8,443 bases of DNA, from positions 1 through 8,443 of the forward strand of contig JAUWCW010000075.1 in NCBI GenBank assembly GCA_030609125.1, in the 5' to 3' direction. The number at the start of each line of letters is the position of its first letter. Position 1 is the stretch's first letter. This document shows, one piece after another, positions 82 through 8,316 of this stretch. The position numbers were made by a program, and so were the translations under genes. The notes below the pieces were generated by a model, which was given only the letters and a program-made list of their open reading frames with translations, searched no databases and was not told the origin of the DNA. The stretch is from JAUWCW01 sp030609125 [NCBI: Candidatus Rokuibacteriota bacterium] (GTDB lineage: Bacteria > JAUVQV01).

Positions 82-1305
82 TCACTGGCCCCGCAGGAAG
101 CGGCCCAGGAGGCGGTGGCCCTCCTCTATCATCACTCCCGAGTTGAGGGCCGAGTCCTCGCTGAAGGAAATCTGCCGCACCCCTTCCGCTGCCGGGGCCG
201 GCGAAATGACGTAGGGGACGGGGTCTCCGGTGTGGGTTCTCATCTGCAGGGGGGTGGGGTGGTCGGGAGCGGCGAGAACCCTGAAGTCCTCTCCCGCCCG
301 GCTCTCGAGAACGGGACCGAGAAACTCCGCATCGATGCTCTCGATGGCGCGCACCTTGAGCTCCGCCTCCCCCTGGTGTCCAGCCTCGTCGGGGGCCTCG
401 ATGTGGACGAAGACGATGTCGTGCTCTTCCAGGGCCTTCAGCGCGTACGCCGCCTTGGCGCCGTAGTCGGTGTCCACGTAGCCCGTCGCCCCCGGCACGA
501 CGATCCGCTCCAGACCGGCGAGAACCCCGATGCCGTTGACGAGATCGACAGCGGAGATGACCGCGCCGGAAAGGCCCGTCGCCTCCTTGAGGGTCGGCAG
601 GGCGGGACGGCGGCCGGCGCCCCAGAACCAGAACGAGTCCGCCGTGAGGAGCCCGCGCTCCCGCCGGCTCCGGTTCACGGGGTGGTCTTTCAGGAAGGCG
701 GCGGAAATCCTCATTAGCTCCAGCAGCCGTGCGGCGCCTTCTCCCCGCGGGAGGTAGTCCTCAACCTCCCTGTCCAGGATGTCGTGGGGAGGCGTAAGGG
801 TCACCTCGTCGCTGCCGCCTTTCCAGACGAGAAGGTGGCGGTAGCCGACTCCGGGGTAGAGGTCCAGGTCGGGCTGGAAGTGCCGCCGGTACTCCTCGGT
901 GAGGCGGAAATCCTCGACGATGCGGCGGCCCTCCCCGGTGCTGATGTGACCGGCGCTGTAGTCTTTCATCTGCGCTCCCGCCTCACCCGGCGCCTTCCCT
1001 TCGGTGCAGACCAGGTTGCAGCGGAAGGCGACGTCCCCGCCGGCGAGCTCGATGCCGAGGCTGGCCGCCTCCAGGGGCGCCCTGCCGGTGTAGTAGCGGG
1101 ACGGGTCGTATCCGAAGAGGCTCAGGTTGGCGACATCGCTCCCCGGGGCCATCCCCTCCGGAACGGTGCGGACGAGTCCGATCTCGCCTTCCCGCACCAG
1201 CCGGTCCAGGTTGGGGGTCCGGGCCGCCTGCAGGGGCGTCTTGCCGTTCAGCGACGGCTCGGGCAGGTCCGCCGAACCGTCGGGAATGAGCACCAGATAC
1301 TTCAC
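82..1305 (-). CDS. apgM: Archaeal-type cofactor-independent phosphoglycerate mutase family protein; candidate homoserine kinase
   Basis: A 407-residue alkaline-phosphatase-superfamily metalloenzyme of the archaeal-type independent phosphoglycerate mutase group. Visible motifs are an N-terminal metal aspartate (LIPDG, D9), the catalytic serine in PGSDVAN (S56), AGHIST near 118-123, and C-terminal metal ligands in APDEAGH (D306, H310), D348-H349 and H358. Length is usual for this group (about 400). The GTG start overlaps the thrC stop as GTGA, with AAGGTG 8 nt upstream; the same frame is open for another 102 codons inside thrC, but that part is a shadow. A subfamily of these proteins, encoded beside hom and thrC, has been proposed as homoserine kinase (TIGR02535, from memory). 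Since no ThrB-type kinase is present and the gene is coupled to thrC, I infer that role; the 2-/3-phosphoglycerate mutase reaction is the alternative. All catalytic residues appear intact. Confidence 0.85.
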   Translation of the reverse strand: MKYLVLIPDGSADLPEPSLNGKTPLQAARTPNLDRLVREGEIGLVRTVPEGMAPGSDVANLSLFGYDPSRYYTGRAPLEAASLGIELAGGDVAFRCNLVCTEGKAPGEAGAQMKDYSAGHISTGEGRRIVEDFRLTEEYRRHFQPDLDLYPGVGYRHLLVWKGGSDEVTLTPPHDILDREVEDYLPRGEGAARLLELMRISAAFLKDHPVNRSRRERGLLTADSFWFWGAGRRPALPTLKEATGLSGAVISAVDLVNGIGVLAGLERIVVPGATGYVDTDYGAKAAYALKALEEHDIVFVHIEAPDEAGHQGEAELKVRAIESIDAEFLGPVLESRAGEDFRVLAAPDHPTPLQMRTHTGDPVPYVISPAPAAEGVRQISFSEDSALNSGVMIEEGHRLLGRFLRGQ

Positions 1306-2360
1306 AGGCCCAGCACCTTGAGGACGGCGTCCTTTTCGGCCTCGACCGTGTGGGCCGGAGAGGACACCCTGATGGCAAGGTCCGGGTCCTTCAGGCCGTG
1401 GCCCGTGAGGGTCAGAACGAGCCTCTGGCCCTTGCGAAAGTAGCCCCGCTCCTGCAGCTTGCGCACCCCGGCCACGGTGGCGGCCGAGGCGGGCTCGCAG
1501 AAGATGCCCTCCGCCGAGGCCAGCATCCTGTACGCCTCGACGATCTCCTCGTCCGTCACGGACTCGATGAGCCCTCCCGACTCGTCCCTGGCGGCGACGG
1601 CCTGCTTCCACGAAGCGGGGTTGCCGATCCTGATGGCGGTGGCCAGGGTTTCGGGCTTCTCAACGGGATGGCCGAGAACGATAGGGGCCGCCCCCGCCGC
1701 CTGGAAACCGAGCATCACCGGCAGACGGTCGATGACTCCCTGCTCGCGGTAGGTCCGGTACCCCCGCCAGTAGGCGGTGATGTTGCCCGCGTTGCCGACG
1801 GGAAGGACGTGACAGTCCGGCGGGCCGTCGAGGGCATCGCAGACCTCGAAGGCGGCGGTGGTCTGGCCCTCGATCCGGTAGGGGTTGACGGAGTTCACCA
1901 GCGTCACGGGGTGCTCCGCGGAGATTTCCCGTACCAGGCGCAGGGCGTCGTCGAAATTGCCCTTCACCTGCAGGACCCTTGCCCCGTGAACCATGGCCTG
2001 GGAGAGCTTGCCGAGGGCTATTTTCCCCTCGGGGATGAGCACGAAACAGTCGATCCCCGCCCGGGCGGCAAAGGCGGAGGCGGAAGCGGAGGTGTTGCCG
2101 GTGGAGGCGCAGATCACCGCCCGCGAGCCCGCCTCTCTCGCCTTGGAGAGGGCCATCGTCATCCCCCTGTCCTTGAAGCTGCCCGTGGGATTGAGGCCCT
2201 CGTACTTCAGGTATATCTCGAGGTCCGGGTTGATGATCCGCGCGAGGTTGTCGGCCTTGACGAGGGGCGTGTTCCCCTCGTTCAGGGTTATGACGGGAGT
2301 CTTCTCCGAGACTGAGAGAAACTCACGGTACCGCTCGATCACACCCATCCACCGGCTCAT
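1302..2360 (-). CDS. thrC: Threonine synthase
   Basis: PLP enzyme that converts O-phospho-L-homoserine and water to L-threonine and phosphate, the last step of threonine synthesis, in the cytoplasm. The 352-residue length fits the short bacterial form. Visible features are the N-terminal EGNTPL stretch (28-33), the Schiff-base lysine K63 in GSFKDRGM, the substrate-binding STGNTSAS (86-93) and the phosphate-binding loop VGNAGN (188-193). The ATG start overlaps the hom stop as ATGA, with a GA-rich ribosome binding site (GGAGAGGAGAG) in the end of hom, so translation is probably coupled. A second in-frame Met (M5) is possible but less well placed. The gene is intact, lies between hom and the mutase-like gene, and matches the Bacillus-like ThrC pattern around the N-terminal W-x-G-x-I segment. 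Confidence 0.96.
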   Translation of the reverse strand: MSRWMGVIERYREFLSVSEKTPVITLNEGNTPLVKADNLARIINPDLEIYLKYEGLNPTGSFKDRGMTMALSKAREAGSRAVICASTGNTSASASAFAARAGIDCFVLIPEGKIALGKLSQAMVHGARVLQVKGNFDDALRLVREISAEHPVTLVNSVNPYRIEGQTTAAFEVCDALDGPPDCHVLPVGNAGNITAYWRGYRTYREQGVIDRLPVMLGFQAAGAAPIVLGHPVEKPETLATAIRIGNPASWKQAVAARDESGGLIESVTDEEIVEAYRMLASAEGIFCEPASAATVAGVRKLQERGYFRKGQRLVLTLTGHGLKDPDLAIRVSSPAHTVEAEKDAVLKVLGL

Positions 2361-3667
2361 TCCGAACTCTCCTCTCCGCTCTCTTCGACCCTGATGCAGA
2401 CCGGCGGAGCGGTTACGACCTGCCGGCCGGCGATCTCATCGAGAGCGGCCCTCACCGACGCCTCCCTGGCGCTGTGAGTCATCATGACGATGGGGACGGC
2501 GCTCCCCGCCTCGCGTCCCCTCTGGATGACGGAGGCGATGCTGATCTCGTGGCGGGCGAGGACCCCCGATATGGCCGCCAGTATGCCGGGGCGGTCGGGA
2601 GACATGAAGCGGATGTAGCAGGGGCATCTCACCTCTTCCATGGGGACGATGGGACGCTCCTCCTCGAGAGTGATCCGGAACGGGGAGGGACCGCCGCCGG
2701 TCCTGATGCTTCTCGCCATCTCGACCAGGTCCGCCACGACGGCACTCGCCGTGGGCAGGCTCCCGGCTCCGAGGCCGTACAGGAGGGTCGGGCCGACTGC
2801 GTCGCCCCGTATGTAGATGGCGTTGAAGACGTCGCCCACGGTGGCCAGGAGGTGCCCTTTGGGAATCATGGTGGGGTGGACCCGCGCCTCGACACGCTCC
2901 CCGCCGGCCTTGGCCACAGCGAGAAGCTTGACGACATAGCCAAGCTCCCGGGCGATTTCAAGGTCTATCAGCGAAATCCCTGATATCCCCTCGGTGTAAA
3001 TCTTCTCCAGCGGGACGCAGGTGTCGAAGGCGAGGCTCGCCAGGATGGCCAGCTTGTGGGCCGCGTCTCCCCCGTCTATGTCAAGGCCGGGGTCCGCCTC
3101 GGCGTACCCCATCTCCTGGGCCCGTCTGAGGGCCGTCTCGAAATCGAGCCCCTCTTCCGACATGCGGGTCAGGATGTAGTTCGAGGTGCCGTTGATGATG
3201 CCGTGGATGGACTCGATCCGGTTCGCCACCAGCCCCTCCCGCAGAGCCCGAATGACCGGTATGCCCCCGCCGACGCTCGCCTCGAAGCCGAGCCTGCCTC
3301 CCCCCTCCTGCGAGGCTCCGCAAAGCTCCTGCCAGTGGTGGGCGAGAAGGGCCTTGTTGGCGGTGACCACCCCCTTGCCCTTCCCGAGAGCCTGCAGGGT
3401 GAAGGTCCGTGCCGGTTCGAGACCCCCGATGAGCTCCACCACCAGCGGGATATCGGGGTCTTCGATGACCTCCCCGGCGTCGGTGGTAAGCAGGGAGGCC
3501 GGCACCTGGATGCCGCGGTCGGTGGTGACGTCCAGATCGGCCACTTTCGCCAGAGTCAGGGGAAAGCCCAGCCTCTTCTCGATGACGGCACGGTTCTGCA
3601 GGAGGAGGCGGACCACGCCCGCTCCGACGGTGCCGAAACCGATCACGCCGACTTTCACTTCATGCAT
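2357..3667 (-). CDS. hom: Homoserine dehydrogenase with C-terminal ACT domain
   Basis: Reduces aspartate-4-semialdehyde to homoserine with NAD(P)H, the branch point from lysine to threonine/methionine synthesis. The 436-residue length is typical of the monofunctional bacterial enzyme with a regulatory tail. Visible features are the Rossmann loop GFGTVG (10-15), TANK with K105, the conserved NGTSNYIL segment (159-166), GYAEADP with E190, and the catalytic pair D201/K205 in DGGDAAHK. The ACT domain starts near residue 350 (YIRFMSPDRPGILAAI) and runs to about 425, implying allosteric feedback, classically by threonine. The ATG at 3667 has AGAGGA six nucleotides upstream; a second ATG four bases later is out of frame. 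It is not fused to aspartate kinase, and no aspartate kinase gene lies in this window. It follows alaC after a 95-nt gap and overlaps thrC by four bases. Confidence 0.97.
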   Translation of the reverse strand: MHEVKVGVIGFGTVGAGVVRLLLQNRAVIEKRLGFPLTLAKVADLDVTTDRGIQVPASLLTTDAGEVIEDPDIPLVVELIGGLEPARTFTLQALGKGKGVVTANKALLAHHWQELCGASQEGGGRLGFEASVGGGIPVIRALREGLVANRIESIHGIINGTSNYILTRMSEEGLDFETALRRAQEMGYAEADPGLDIDGGDAAHKLAILASLAFDTCVPLEKIYTEGISGISLIDLEIARELGYVVKLLAVAKAGGERVEARVHPTMIPKGHLLATVGDVFNAIYIRGDAVGPTLLYGLGAGSLPTASAVVADLVEMARSIRTGGGPSPFRITLEEERPIVPMEEVRCPCYIRFMSPDRPGILAAISGVLARHEISIASVIQRGREAGSAVPIVMMTHSAREASVRAALDEIAGRQVVTAPPVCIRVEESGEESSE

Positions 3668-3693
3668 CGTTGTTCCTCTCGTGAGTCGTTCAT

Positions 3694-3746
3694 CGTATGT
3701 CGTATGTCGTCGCAGGCTGAAGCCTGCGCCTACAAGCCTGCGGCTT
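3694..3746. repeat. Palindromic repeat-like element in the alaC-hom gap
   Basis: The 95-nt alaC-hom gap holds two features. First, a tandem heptamer: CGTATGT at 3694-3700 and again at 3701-3707, followed by a partial CGT. Second, a perfect 8-bp inverted repeat, CGCAGGCT-GA-AGCCTGCG (3711-3728), followed six bases later by a smaller dyad, AAGCC-TGC-GGCTT (3734-3746), that reuses the same GCAGGCTT core. In the operon mRNA the large dyad can fold as a seven-pair stem with a UUCA loop. There is no U tract, so it is not a classical terminator. The composition resembles dispersed intergenic palindromic (REP-like) elements common in deltaproteobacteria, a judgement from memory. Only one copy is visible here, so dispersal cannot be shown from this window. 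Confidence 0.6.
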
Positions 3747-3762
3747 TCATACCGGGCCGGGA

Positions 3763-4935
<1,173 letters not shown>

Positions 4936-5871: not shown

Positions 5872-5900
5872 ACCATAGGGGAAATAAGGGAAACTGTCAA
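5872..5900 (-). promoter_or_regulatory. Sigma70-like promoter of the lipA-alaC-hom-thrC-apgM operon
   Basis: The minus strand carries TTGACA (5900-5895), a 17-nt spacer and TATGGT (5877-5872; four of six consensus bases). Transcription would start near 5865 and give a leader of about 28 nt that contains the strong lipA ribosome binding site. It is the only convincing promoter seen ahead of the cluster. The leader is too short for a riboswitch or attenuator. Start site inferred from spacing only. Confidence 0.7.
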
Positions 5901-5937
5901 GAAGAGCTCCGAATTCCGCCACCCCGGCACACCCTCA

Positions 5938-5966
5938 TTGACAAGGGGAACGGCACTCCCTAAGAT
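5938..5966 (+). promoter_or_regulatory. Sigma70-like promoter of the hybrid kinase gene, predicted to give a leaderless mRNA
   Basis: The plus strand carries TTGACA (5938-5943), a 17-nt spacer and TAAGAT (5961-5966; four of six consensus bases). A start six to eight bases after the -10 falls at 5972-5974, only 3-5 nt before the ATG at 5977. No Shine-Dalgarno sequence is visible before that ATG, which fits leaderless or near-leaderless translation. The -35 lies 37 bp from the -35 of the divergent lipA promoter. Confidence 0.65.
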
Positions 5967-5976
5967 CTATGCTGCC

Positions 5977-8316
5977 ATGAAGGTCCGAAAAATCCTCGTC
6001 GTCGACAACAACGCCACGATCGTGGAGCTCGTCGGGAATCTTCTCACCCAGGCAGGGTATGAGGTCGACAAGGCCTACGACGGCATCGGCGCCCTCGACA
6101 GGCTCGAAGAGGCGGATGTCCTCCCCGACGCCATTCTCCTCGACCTCGTCATGCCCAAGATCGACGGGCAGCGGCTGACGCGCATCCTCAAGGCCGACGA
6201 GCGGTACGCCCACATTCCCATCGTCATCCTCTCCGGCATCGCCGCCGAGGAAGACAGCAGGATCTTCGCTTTCGGGGCCGACGCCTTCATCGCGAAGGGG
6301 AAGATAGACGAGACGTTCAAACACATCCAGGAGACGCTCAAGTGGATCGAGGAGCGGCCCGAGCCGACGGAGAAGAAGGCGGAGGTGCTGGGCGTCGAAA
6401 AGCTCTTTCCCCGGGAGATTTCCAGGGAGCTCCTCCTCGTCAAGCAGCACTTCGACTCCATGTTCAATCTCATGCAGGAGGGGGTTATCGAGATCGACCA
6501 GGACCACCGGGTCCTCTTCGTCAACCCCGCCGCCCAGCGCCTGCTCTGCCTGAAGGACCACCAACTCTTCGCCAAGCCGGTCCAGGACCTTTTTGAGGAC
6601 AAGAAAGCCATCGGCGATTACCTCGACAGCCTGCCCCGGAAGCCTGACGGGACCAGCGAGTCGATCCAGCTCACCTGCGGGCAGTACGTCACCAGGTCCA
6701 TAGCCTCACCTTTTTTTCTCGAGGGTGAGTACATCGGGGCCATCATCATCGTCCAGGACATCACGTCCCTCATCCACCGGGAAAAATCGCTGGAGGGGCA
6801 GATGGCCGCCATCGTCGAAAACGCACCGGTGGGGCTCTGTCTTCTCAACGAGGAGGGACTGGTCCAGGTGGCCAACAACTCCCTGAAACGGATTCTCCGC
6901 CAGGCGCCCGACTGGAAGCCGGCGGGGCTGAACATCCTCGAGTTTCTCGCCGGAGTGAGCCCGCCCCTCAGTGACGCGCTGCGTAACATCCTCACCCTTG
7001 CGCCGGGGAAAATGCTGGTCCACAAAGCCGACTACTTCCCGGCGGGAGAGCCGATCCGCCAGGTCCTCAACGTCACCGCCAAGGCGCTCGACGGAGAAGG
7101 AGGAGCGCGGTTTCTGCTCCTCGTGGAAGACGTGACGGAGAAGGCCCTGCTGGAGGGAAACCTCCGTCGCGTCAACGACGAACTCGACAAGGCAAGCAGG
7201 TCCAAATCGACCTTCCTCTCCATGGTCTCCCACGAGCTTCGGACCCCCCTCTCCGTGGTGAGGGGCTACATCTCCCTTATCCTGGAAGGCAAGATCGGTC
7301 CCGATCCGGACCAGATGCAGGCGGCCCTGCAGGTTGCGGACAAGCGGGCACGGCACCTTCAGCACCTCATCGAGGAACTCCTCGACCTTTCCAGGATCGA
7401 GGCCGGCAAGCTTTCCATCAAGAGAGAGAACCTGGAGATCGCGAAGCACGCGCGGGAAACCGTCGAGATGTTCAAGGACGACCAGGAGCAGAAGGAGCTC
7501 GAGATCGTTCTCGACATCCCCGACGGGATCCCTCCCGTCTTCGCCGATCACGACAAGATCCACCAGGTCTTCACCAACCTGGTTTCCAACGCCATCAAGT
7601 TCAGCAACAGCGGCGGCCGGATCGTCATCTCCGCAAGGCAGGAGGGGGATCGTGTGGAGATCAAGGTCACCGACGGCGGGATCGGCATCCCCGCCGACAG
7701 GATCGACCGGATCTTCGAGAAGTTCTACCAGGTGGACTCGTCGGACACGCGCAAGCACGCCGGGACCGGGCTTGGCCTGTCGATCGTGAAGATGATAATT
7801 GCCGCCCTCGGCGGATCGATGCACGTCACCAGTGAGGTCGACAAGGGAACGACTTTCACCTTCACCCTCCCCCTGGGAACCGCGGCCGCCCCCGCGGAAA
7901 AGGTCTCCTCCGCTCCGGAACCGGAGCCCGTCAGGAAAGAGCCGGCGGCGCGGAAGAAACGGATTCTCGTCGTGGAGGACGACCGGGACACACTGGAGCT
8001 GATCCGGATCTTTCTGGCGAACGCCAACTACGAGGTCACCGTCGCCAACGACGCCTTTCTGGGGTTGAAAGAGTTCTTCCGCCAGCCCCCCGACCTCGTT
8101 CTCGCCGACGCCCTGCTCCCGCTGATGACGGGACTCGACATGTGCCGCGTCATCAAGAACAACCCGGAAACGAAGAACCTGCCGGTGATGATTCTTTCGG
8201 CGGCGGCCCAGGAGGATGAGATCCAAAGCGGCTACGAAGTCGGCGCCGACGCCTATCTTGTCAAGCCCGTCACCTCCCAGGACCTGATCGACGCCATCCG
8301 CAAATATACGTCCTGA
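5977..8316 (+). CDS. Soluble hybrid sensor histidine kinase, REC-PAS-PAS-HisKA-HATPase-REC
   Basis: A 779-residue two-component protein. Domain order: REC1 (3-123) with phospho-acceptor D56, S86 and K107; PAS1 (about 157-268); PAS2 (about 273-390); HisKA with H419 in SMVSHELRTP; HATPase_c (about 520-635) with N538, DGGIGI (566-571) and GTGLGL (596-601); an Ala/Pro-rich linker (about 636-660); and REC2 (661-779) with E667/D668, D711, S741 and K763 (VKP). It has no signal peptide or membrane span, so it should sense a cytoplasmic cue or receive phosphoryl groups at REC1. REC1 has D10-N11 where a paired acid is usual. The ATG at 5977 is chosen because the protein then begins directly with KVRKILVVD; the frame also opens at TTG 5938, but that codon is the promoter -35. 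A four-codon frame, ATG CTG CCA TGA, overlaps the start. Signal, partner and regulon are unknown. It is divergent from lipA. Confidence 0.92.
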   Translation: MKVRKILVVDNNATIVELVGNLLTQAGYEVDKAYDGIGALDRLEEADVLPDAILLDLVMPKIDGQRLTRILKADERYAHIPIVILSGIAAEEDSRIFAFGADAFIAKGKIDETFKHIQETLKWIEERPEPTEKKAEVLGVEKLFPREISRELLLVKQHFDSMFNLMQEGVIEIDQDHRVLFVNPAAQRLLCLKDHQLFAKPVQDLFEDKKAIGDYLDSLPRKPDGTSESIQLTCGQYVTRSIASPFFLEGEYIGAIIIVQDITSLIHREKSLEGQMAAIVENAPVGLCLLNEEGLVQVANNSLKRILRQAPDWKPAGLNILEFLAGVSPPLSDALRNILTLAPGKMLVHKADYFPAGEPIRQVLNVTAKALDGEGGARFLLLVEDVTEKALLEGNLRRVNDELDKASRSKSTFLSMVSHELRTPLSVVRGYISLILEGKIGPDPDQMQAALQVADKRARHLQHLIEELLDLSRIEAGKLSIKRENLEIAKHARETVEMFKDDQEQKELEIVLDIPDGIPPVFADHDKIHQVFTNLVSNAIKFSNSGGRIVISARQEGDRVEIKVTDGGIGIPADRIDRIFEKFYQVDSSDTRKHAGTGLGLSIVKMIIAALGGSMHVTSEVDKGTTFTFTLPLGTAAAPAEKVSSAPEPEPVRKEPAARKKRILVVEDDRDTLELIRIFLANANYEVTVANDAFLGLKEFFRQPPDLVLADALLPLMTGLDMCRVIKNNPETKNLPVMILSAAAQEDEIQSGYEVGADAYLVKPVTSQDLIDAIRKYTS

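What the first reader, a model, noticed from the sequence alone, without database searches (positions are those of the whole stretch)
82..1305. Mutase-like gene coupled to thrC is a candidate non-orthologous homoserine kinase
Hom and ThrC are encoded here, but the intervening kinase step has no ThrB (GHMP-type) gene. Instead an archaeal-type phosphoglycerate mutase family member with all catalytic residues overlaps the thrC stop by four bases (GTGA). The order hom-thrC-apgM with translational coupling is what one expects if the protein makes O-phosphohomoserine. Family-level proposals for this role exist, but the substrate cannot be read from the sequence.
Basis: partly seen in the sequence, partly recalled or inferred. 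Interest (0 to 1): 0.6.

Follow-up and report, generated by a model that had tools for sequence, protein, structure and literature searches.

The report
ThrB2-type candidate homoserine kinase in threonine operon
A bacterium from a little-sampled phylum carries, chained to its threonine-making genes, a mutase-like enzyme of a family already proposed to replace the usual homoserine kinase; oddly, it is also the only recognisable phosphoglycerate mutase found there, so which job it does is still open.

Summary
In detail: gene 82-1305(-) overlaps the thrC stop by GTGA, hom and thrC overlap by ATGA, and nucleophile and metal ligands are intact. The protein passes NCBI's 'proposed homoserine kinase' model TIGR02535 (497 bits, cut-off 446), but also two models named phosphoglycerate mutase (TIGR00306, NF003242); it fails PRK04024. 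The idea is published (GapMind; 'ThrB2'): Bacteroides mutants need threonine, but E. coli complementation failed. For it: no GHMP- or APH-type kinase found in the host (92% complete); thrC or hom near relatives in Actinomycetota (5 of 5), Omnitrophota (1 of 1) and Clostridia (51 of 55 with enough flank); thrB over cut-off in 1 of 37 carrier genomes; GpmI in 26 of 30 other bacterial carriers; residues shared by two mutase structures replaced (R116, R117, R228W, K303E). Against exclusivity: neither genome of this phylum shows GpmI or a recognisable GpmA, so this is the only mutase candidate; the sister genome has a Desulfovibrio-type homoserine-kinase-like gene, and an Omnitrophota genome has hom-thrB plus thrC-TIGR02535 with no other mutase found. 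Verdict: new member of a known, biochemically unproven kind; dual function not excluded.

The parts
82..1305 (-). TIGR02535 / ThrB2-type protein, 407 aa (archaeal-type phosphoglycerate mutase fold), candidate homoserine phosphotransferase
   Evidence: TIGR02535 497.3 bits over 446.3; NF003242 516.3 over 426; TIGR00306 apgM 492.3 over 320; PRK04024 297.2 under 489; AF2 model pLDDT 94.7; 2zkt_B Z 46.1, rmsd 2.0, 365 aligned
1302..2360 (-). thrC, threonine synthase, 352 aa
   Evidence: TIGR00260 331.7 bits over 167.1
2357..3667 (-). hom, homoserine dehydrogenase with ACT domain, 436 aa
   Evidence: PRK06349 527.4 over 205; PF00742, PF03447, PF01842
1302..1305 (-). GTGA: thrC stop / ThrB2 start overlap (translational coupling inferred)
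   Evidence: sequence read
2357..2360 (-). ATGA: hom stop / thrC start overlap
   Evidence: sequence read
3763..4935 (-). aminotransferase upstream of hom, same strand, 95-nt gap; alanine transaminase model over cut-off
   Evidence: PRK08175 664.4 over 647; part of the operon only by position

Best explanation
The gene encodes a member of the TIGR02535 ('proposed homoserine kinase', ThrB2) branch of the archaeal-type phosphoglycerate mutase family that makes O-phosphohomoserine for the ThrC encoded just upstream. Inferred mechanism: a two-metal site activates Ser56, which takes a phosphoryl group from a small phospho-metabolite (phosphoglycerate or phosphoenolpyruvate rather than ATP) and passes it to the hydroxyl of homoserine; the acidic and tryptophan residues typical of this branch would replace arginines and a lysine of the mutase pocket so that an amino acid is accepted. 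Shown here: family, predicted fold, conserved catalytic residues, operon, genome context. Inferred: substrate, donor, coupling, and that the changed residues line the pocket. Whether the enzyme also keeps mutase activity in this phylum is left open.
For: TIGR02535 over cut-off. In the host: no GHMP homoserine kinase, no APH type, no shikimate-kinase-family protein over cut-off. Of 37 carrier genomes, 1 has a thrB over cut-off (the same search passes its cut-off in 11 of 14 control genomes). 26 of 30 other bacterial carriers also have GpmI, so there the protein is not needed as a mutase. Threonine context: hom-thrC-gene in 5 of 5 Actinomycetota loci, hom-gene in G001, thrC-gene in the one Omnitrophota locus, thrC in the held DNA of 51 of 55 clostridial loci with at least 4.5 kb downstream, about 3.6 kb downstream in the two whose map I read, L013 and L029. 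W226, W228, D175, D254, E303, E307 are fixed in the rows compared and differ in both mutase structures, which have Arg at 228 and Lys at 303. Published: BT2402 mutants need threonine in minimal medium (PMC7311316, passages); 278 of 300 ThrB2 gut genomes lack thrB (PMC9026213, passages).
Against: BT2402 did not complement an E. coli thrB mutant (PMC7311316). No GpmI or recognisable GpmA in G000 or G001, so the protein is the only mutase candidate. G001 has a second shikimate-kinase-like protein best matched by the Desulfovibrio homoserine kinase model, 178.5 bits (cut-off 197; next best 99.6). Omnitrophota G029 has hom-thrB and thrC-TIGR02535, with no GpmI and no histidine-phosphatase match. 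Two mutase-named models, TIGR00306 and NF003242, also pass their cut-offs. The five archaeal loci show no thrC or hom within the DNA held. The host assembly lacks even a shikimate kinase over cut-off, so absences there are weak.
Confidence: 0.6

Rival explanations
1. Dual enzyme: one phospho-Ser56 intermediate loaded from phosphoglycerate is handed either back to glycerate (mutase) or to homoserine (kinase-like transfer), so one gene fills both steps in this phylum.
For: In the host genome I found neither another homoserine kinase nor another mutase; G001 lacks GpmI and a recognisable GpmA too; each of the two genomes has one copy of the family; one catalytic chemistry could serve both.
Against: R116, R117, R228 and K303, shared by both mutase structures, are replaced in the rows compared, which suggests a changed pocket, though the positions were not mapped in 3D. 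A divergent mutase (for example L103 in G001) or assembly gaps would explain the absences: G005 and G011 lack GpmI while G006 and G012, whose TIGR02535 proteins are almost identical to theirs, have it.
Confidence: 0.2
2. Ordinary phosphoglycerate mutase that happens to sit in the threonine operon; homoserine is phosphorylated by another enzyme, such as the shikimate-kinase-like type.
For: Only mutase candidate recognised in G000, G001 and G029; another homoserine kinase or candidate is present in G029 and G001; nucleophile and metal ligands kept; TIGR00306 and NF003242, named as mutases, over cut-off.
Against: Below the PRK04024 cut-off; 26 of 30 bacterial relatives already have GpmI; threonine linkage in four phyla counting its own; no alternative kinase found in G000 itself.
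Confidence: 0.14
3. Another amino-acid phosphotransferase, for example an L-threonine kinase for corrinoid synthesis as suggested for Dehre_1608 (CbiU).
For: A TIGR02535 member lies in a corrinoid operon of Dehalobacter restrictus, role proposed only (PMC4285132, one passage read).
Against: None of the six window proteins scanned is a corrinoid enzyme; the neighbours are thrC and hom.
Confidence: 0.04

Closest known systems
TIGR02535 / ThrB2 proposed homoserine kinase (Bacteroides thetaiotaomicron BT2402)
   Same: Same NCBI model over cut-off (for BT2402 as stated in PMC7311316); linked to hom/thrC; Arg at position 38 as reported for BT2402 (PMC9765024; window position)
   Different: Different phylum; no separate mutase recognised in the host; BT2402 itself was not aligned here
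Archaeal ApgM (PH0037 2zkt; Thermoplasma 3kd8/3idd)
   Same: Fold of the predicted model (Z 46.1, and 34.1 for 3kd8), nucleophile, metal ligands, R75, R95, R156
   Different: H60, R116, R117, R228 and K303 of the structures replaced; D175, D254, E303, E307, W226, W228 instead
GHMP homoserine kinase ThrB (TIGR00191)
   Same: Supposed reaction product
   Different: Different protein family; none over cut-off in the host
Shikimate-kinase-like homoserine kinase (DvMF_0971; NF040667)
   Same: Another non-orthologous replacement; DvMF_0971 rescues E. coli thrB (PMC5764234, passages)
   Different: Different protein family; a candidate exists in G001, none found in the host
GpmI (iPGM, PF06415)
   Same: Metal-site segment aligns (80 columns, probability 79.7)
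   Different: No iPGM_N domain (PF10143 instead); GpmI itself not found in either genome of the phylum

Membership tests
TIGR02535 (ThrB2) proposed homoserine kinase | Whole-protein score over the curated cut-off | tested here: met
   497.3 over 446.3 bits
TIGR02535 (ThrB2) proposed homoserine kinase | Groups with the subfamily apart from true mutases | tested here: inconclusive
   37 relatives incl. window split from two mutase structures at 100/100, but relatives were fetched with peptides of the window and G001 proteins, only two mutases were in the tree, BT2402 was not, and only 8 of the 37 were scored against TIGR02535 (7 over, L084 442.8 under)
TIGR02535 (ThrB2) proposed homoserine kinase | Neighbouring threonine genes | tested here: met
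   hom-thrC-gene with 4-nt overlaps; relatives
TIGR02535 (ThrB2) proposed homoserine kinase | No other homoserine kinase in the genome | tested here: inconclusive
   None found, but the assembly is 92.4% complete and lacks even a shikimate kinase over cut-off; the sister genome has an SK-like candidate
TIGR02535 (ThrB2) proposed homoserine kinase | Forms O-phosphohomoserine | not testable with these tools
   needs assay
Archaeal-type phosphoglycerate mutase (TIGR00306 / NF003242 / PRK04024) | Broad apgM subfamily model TIGR00306 and NF003242 over cut-off | tested here: met
   492.3 over 320; 516.3 over 426
Archaeal-type phosphoglycerate mutase (TIGR00306 / NF003242 / PRK04024) | Equivalog model PRK04024 over cut-off | tested here: not met
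   297.2 under 489 bits
Archaeal-type phosphoglycerate mutase (TIGR00306 / NF003242 / PRK04024) | Catalytic serine and metal ligands | tested here: met
   S56, D9, D306, H310, D348, H349, H358
Archaeal-type phosphoglycerate mutase (TIGR00306 / NF003242 / PRK04024) | Basic residues common to the two solved mutases at 116, 117, 228, 303 | tested here: not met
   Y116, S117, W228, E303 in the window; that these residues touch the substrate was not shown
Archaeal-type phosphoglycerate mutase (TIGR00306 / NF003242 / PRK04024) | Only mutase of the genome | tested here: inconclusive
   No GpmI (best 12.3 bits, under cut-off 27) and one histidine phosphatase that reads as SixA; genome incomplete
Archaeal-type phosphoglycerate mutase (TIGR00306 / NF003242 / PRK04024) | Mutase activity | not testable with these tools
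   needs assay
GHMP homoserine kinase ThrB | GHMP domain | tested here: not met
   PF10143 and PF01676 only

The most novel reading that the evidence does not exclude
In this phylum one enzyme, encoded in the threonine operon, does both the phosphoglycerate mutase step of central metabolism and the ATP-independent phosphorylation of homoserine from the same phosphoserine intermediate, tying threonine synthesis directly to the phosphoglycerate/PEP pool.
Probability: 0.18. Interest if true: 0.7.

Novelty: new member of a known kind. Interest (0 to 1): 0.4.

Why it matters
[quoted passage not shown] open-licence papers, mostly seen as listings or passages) showed me no assay of a purified member. 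This lineage sharpens the question: it has no other recognisable mutase, so assaying one protein with homoserine and with phosphoglycerate would decide between replacement, dual function and plain mutase, and would help settle conflicting NCBI model names.

Tried and rejected
A thrB hidden in the host: the single GHMP hit is a 309-aa frame that reads as IspE (name by recalled motif); rejected. APH-type kinase: no match in the host. GpmA in the host: the only PF00300 hit is a 162-aa frame that reads as SixA (recalled motif). In G001 the PF00300 hits are a SixA-like frame (L100), a 405-aa histidine-phosphatase-like protein without an NCBIfam match (L103; a divergent mutase is not excluded) and one that looks spurious (L105). 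Phylum-wide co-occurrence: not possible, only two genomes are held. Mapping the pocket in 3D: model coordinates were not among the script files, and the profile comparison with GpmI aligned 80 columns around the metal site only. Papers on contact residues gave little. RNA leader: no Rfam match at gathering threshold in the window. Naming the host's taxon: no tool output named it.

Limits and rows dropped. Relatives were fetched with two peptide patterns (MKYLVLIP and AD[SN]FWFW), so residues 1-8 are alike by selection and the sample leans to the window's own branch; the best 80 of 87 were kept. For the genome searches I gave 35 of those 80 loci plus G000 and G001; the completeness of the 35 is not told. 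PF06415 and TIGR00191 were run on 37 genomes, PF00300 on 6, PF01202 on 2, TIGR00938 and PF00288 on the host alone. L074, L085 and L087 were left out of the profile as partial; the tree used 39 rows. The specificity comparison rests on two mutase structures.

Full report
What is there. The window lies on contig C372 of a 2.32-Mb, 376-contig genome, 92.4% complete, 2.15% contaminated. On the minus strand run an alanine-transaminase-like gene (3763-4935), hom (2357-3667), thrC (1302-2360) and the gene of the finding (82-1305). hom and thrC overlap by ATGA, thrC and the last gene by GTGA.

What the protein is. It scores 497 bits against TIGR02535 'proposed homoserine kinase' (cut-off 446), 516 against NF003242 'cofactor-independent phosphoglycerate mutase' (cut-off 426), 492 against the broad apgM subfamily model TIGR00306 (cut-off 320) and 297 against PRK04024, another mutase model (cut-off 489). 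NCBI thus has models with conflicting names over their cut-offs on the same protein. The predicted structure is confident (mean pLDDT 94.7) and matches PH0037 (2zkt_B, Z 46.1, rmsd 2.0 over 365 residues) and the Thermoplasma mutase (3kd8_A, Z 34.1, rmsd 4.9). In a 39-row tree the window and its sister G001 pair at 100/99, and 37 rows stand apart from the two mutase structures at 100/100; the tool warned that the Omnitrophota row L073 sits on a long branch. Of the 37, eight were scored: seven pass TIGR02535, the Archaeoglobi row L084 narrowly does not (442.8 against 446.3). Because the relatives were fetched with peptides of the window and G001 proteins, the tree shows which branch the window belongs to but not where that branch ends.

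Residues. The serine and metal ligands are unchanged. Of 160 columns in which the two solved mutases share a residue, 47 have that residue at a lineage-weighted frequency under 0.1 among the relatives; among the 47 are 9 Lys/Arg, including R116, R117, R228 and K303, and 5 Asp/Glu. Six positions are fixed in the rows compared (window phylum, Actinomycetota, Omnitrophota, Archaeoglobi, Clostridia) and differ in both mutases: D175, W226, W228, D254, E303, E307. This fits a changed substrate site, but only two mutases were compared and no distance to the active site was measured.

Context elsewhere. Relatives in Actinomycetota have hom-thrC-gene in 5 of 5 loci; G001 has hom joined to the gene by ATGA, without thrC between; the Omnitrophota locus has thrC immediately upstream; thrC lies in the held DNA of 51 of 55 clostridial loci with at least 4.5 kb downstream (52 of all 69), with hom in 0 of 69. 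The five Archaeoglobi loci show neither by the same search.

Who else could phosphorylate homoserine. In the host: no GHMP thrB, no APH type, no shikimate-kinase-family protein over cut-off, not even the expected shikimate kinase, which suggests that the assembly has gaps. Among 37 genomes searched, thrB passes its cut-off in 1, the Omnitrophota G029, where it sits behind hom. Its contig and that of the TIGR02535 gene are alike in composition (G+C 0.48 and 0.47; tetranucleotide r 0.85, against 0.66 and 0.14 for two unrelated loci), so they probably belong to one genome. G001 has a shikimate kinase between aroC- and aroB-like frames (best model 140.7 bits, itself under its cut-off of 204) and a second shikimate-kinase-like protein whose best model is the Desulfovibrio homoserine kinase NF040667, 178.5 bits, under the cut-off of 197 but far above the next, 99.6. 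The other 35 genomes were not searched for that type.

Who else could be the mutase. GpmI is found in 26 of 30 bacterial relatives, in 0 of 5 Archaeoglobi, and in neither G000 nor G001 (the model is found in 6 of 14 control genomes). PF00300, run on six genomes, gave only SixA-like or doubtful proteins in G000 and G001 and nothing over cut-off in G004, G005, G011 and G029 (found in 13 of 14 controls). G005 and G011 lack GpmI although G006 and G012, with almost identical TIGR02535 proteins, have it, so single absences can be assembly gaps; two absences in the only two held genomes of a phylum are less easily dismissed. Each of the two has one copy of the family. Whether the host has enolase, and so needs a mutase, was not tested.

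Literature. GapMind (PMC7311316, passages) reports that BT2402 mutants need threonine, that BT2402 did not rescue an E. coli thrB mutant, and leaves its role uncertain. PMC9026213 (passages) names the family ThrB2 and reports complementary occurrence with thrB in gut genomes. PMC4285132 (one passage) proposes a threonine kinase role for another member. PMC5764234 (passages) reports the shikimate-kinase-like homoserine kinase. PMC9765024 (passages) reports R38 in BT2402 where the mutase has E41; the window also has Arg38. My searches showed me no assay of a purified member; most subscription papers are outside the library.

Verdict. A sound observation, a member of a known family with a published but biochemically unproven role. 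Homoserine phosphorylation is the likeliest function; a dual role with phosphoglycerate mutase is the most interesting reading that the evidence leaves open.

Noticed in passing
G000 genome (L108): No shikimate kinase over cut-off in the host although a frame that reads as EPSP synthase (recalled motif) is present: assembly gap or an unusual enzyme.
   Followed up: partly
L109:1465-1989 (G001): Shikimate-kinase-like protein best matched by the Desulfovibrio homoserine kinase model, with GGS in place of the GGG seen in the aro-cluster kinase L107.
   Followed up: partly
L103:1447-2658 (G001): 405-aa histidine-phosphatase-like frame without an NCBIfam match at E 0.001.
   Followed up: no
L073 and L092 (G029, Omnitrophota): hom-thrB and thrC-TIGR02535 pairs on separate contigs of one genome: apparent redundancy of homoserine kinases; the L073 protein has Ala at D57, which is Asp in 76 of 77 bacterial rows.
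   Followed up: partly
window 3668-3762: Short palindrome CGCAGGCTGAAGCCTGCG and a 12-nt direct repeat between the aminotransferase gene and hom; no exact match of the palindrome in the 113 loci held.
   Followed up: partly
window 5977-8316: Divergent hybrid sensor kinase (receiver, PAS, HisKA, HATPase, receiver); promoter-like TTGACA sites on both strands within 5872-5966.
   Followed up: no
NCBIfam NF003242 and TIGR02535: Two models with conflicting names (mutase, proposed homoserine kinase) both pass their cut-offs on the window protein and on 6 of 7 relatives scored.
   Followed up: yes
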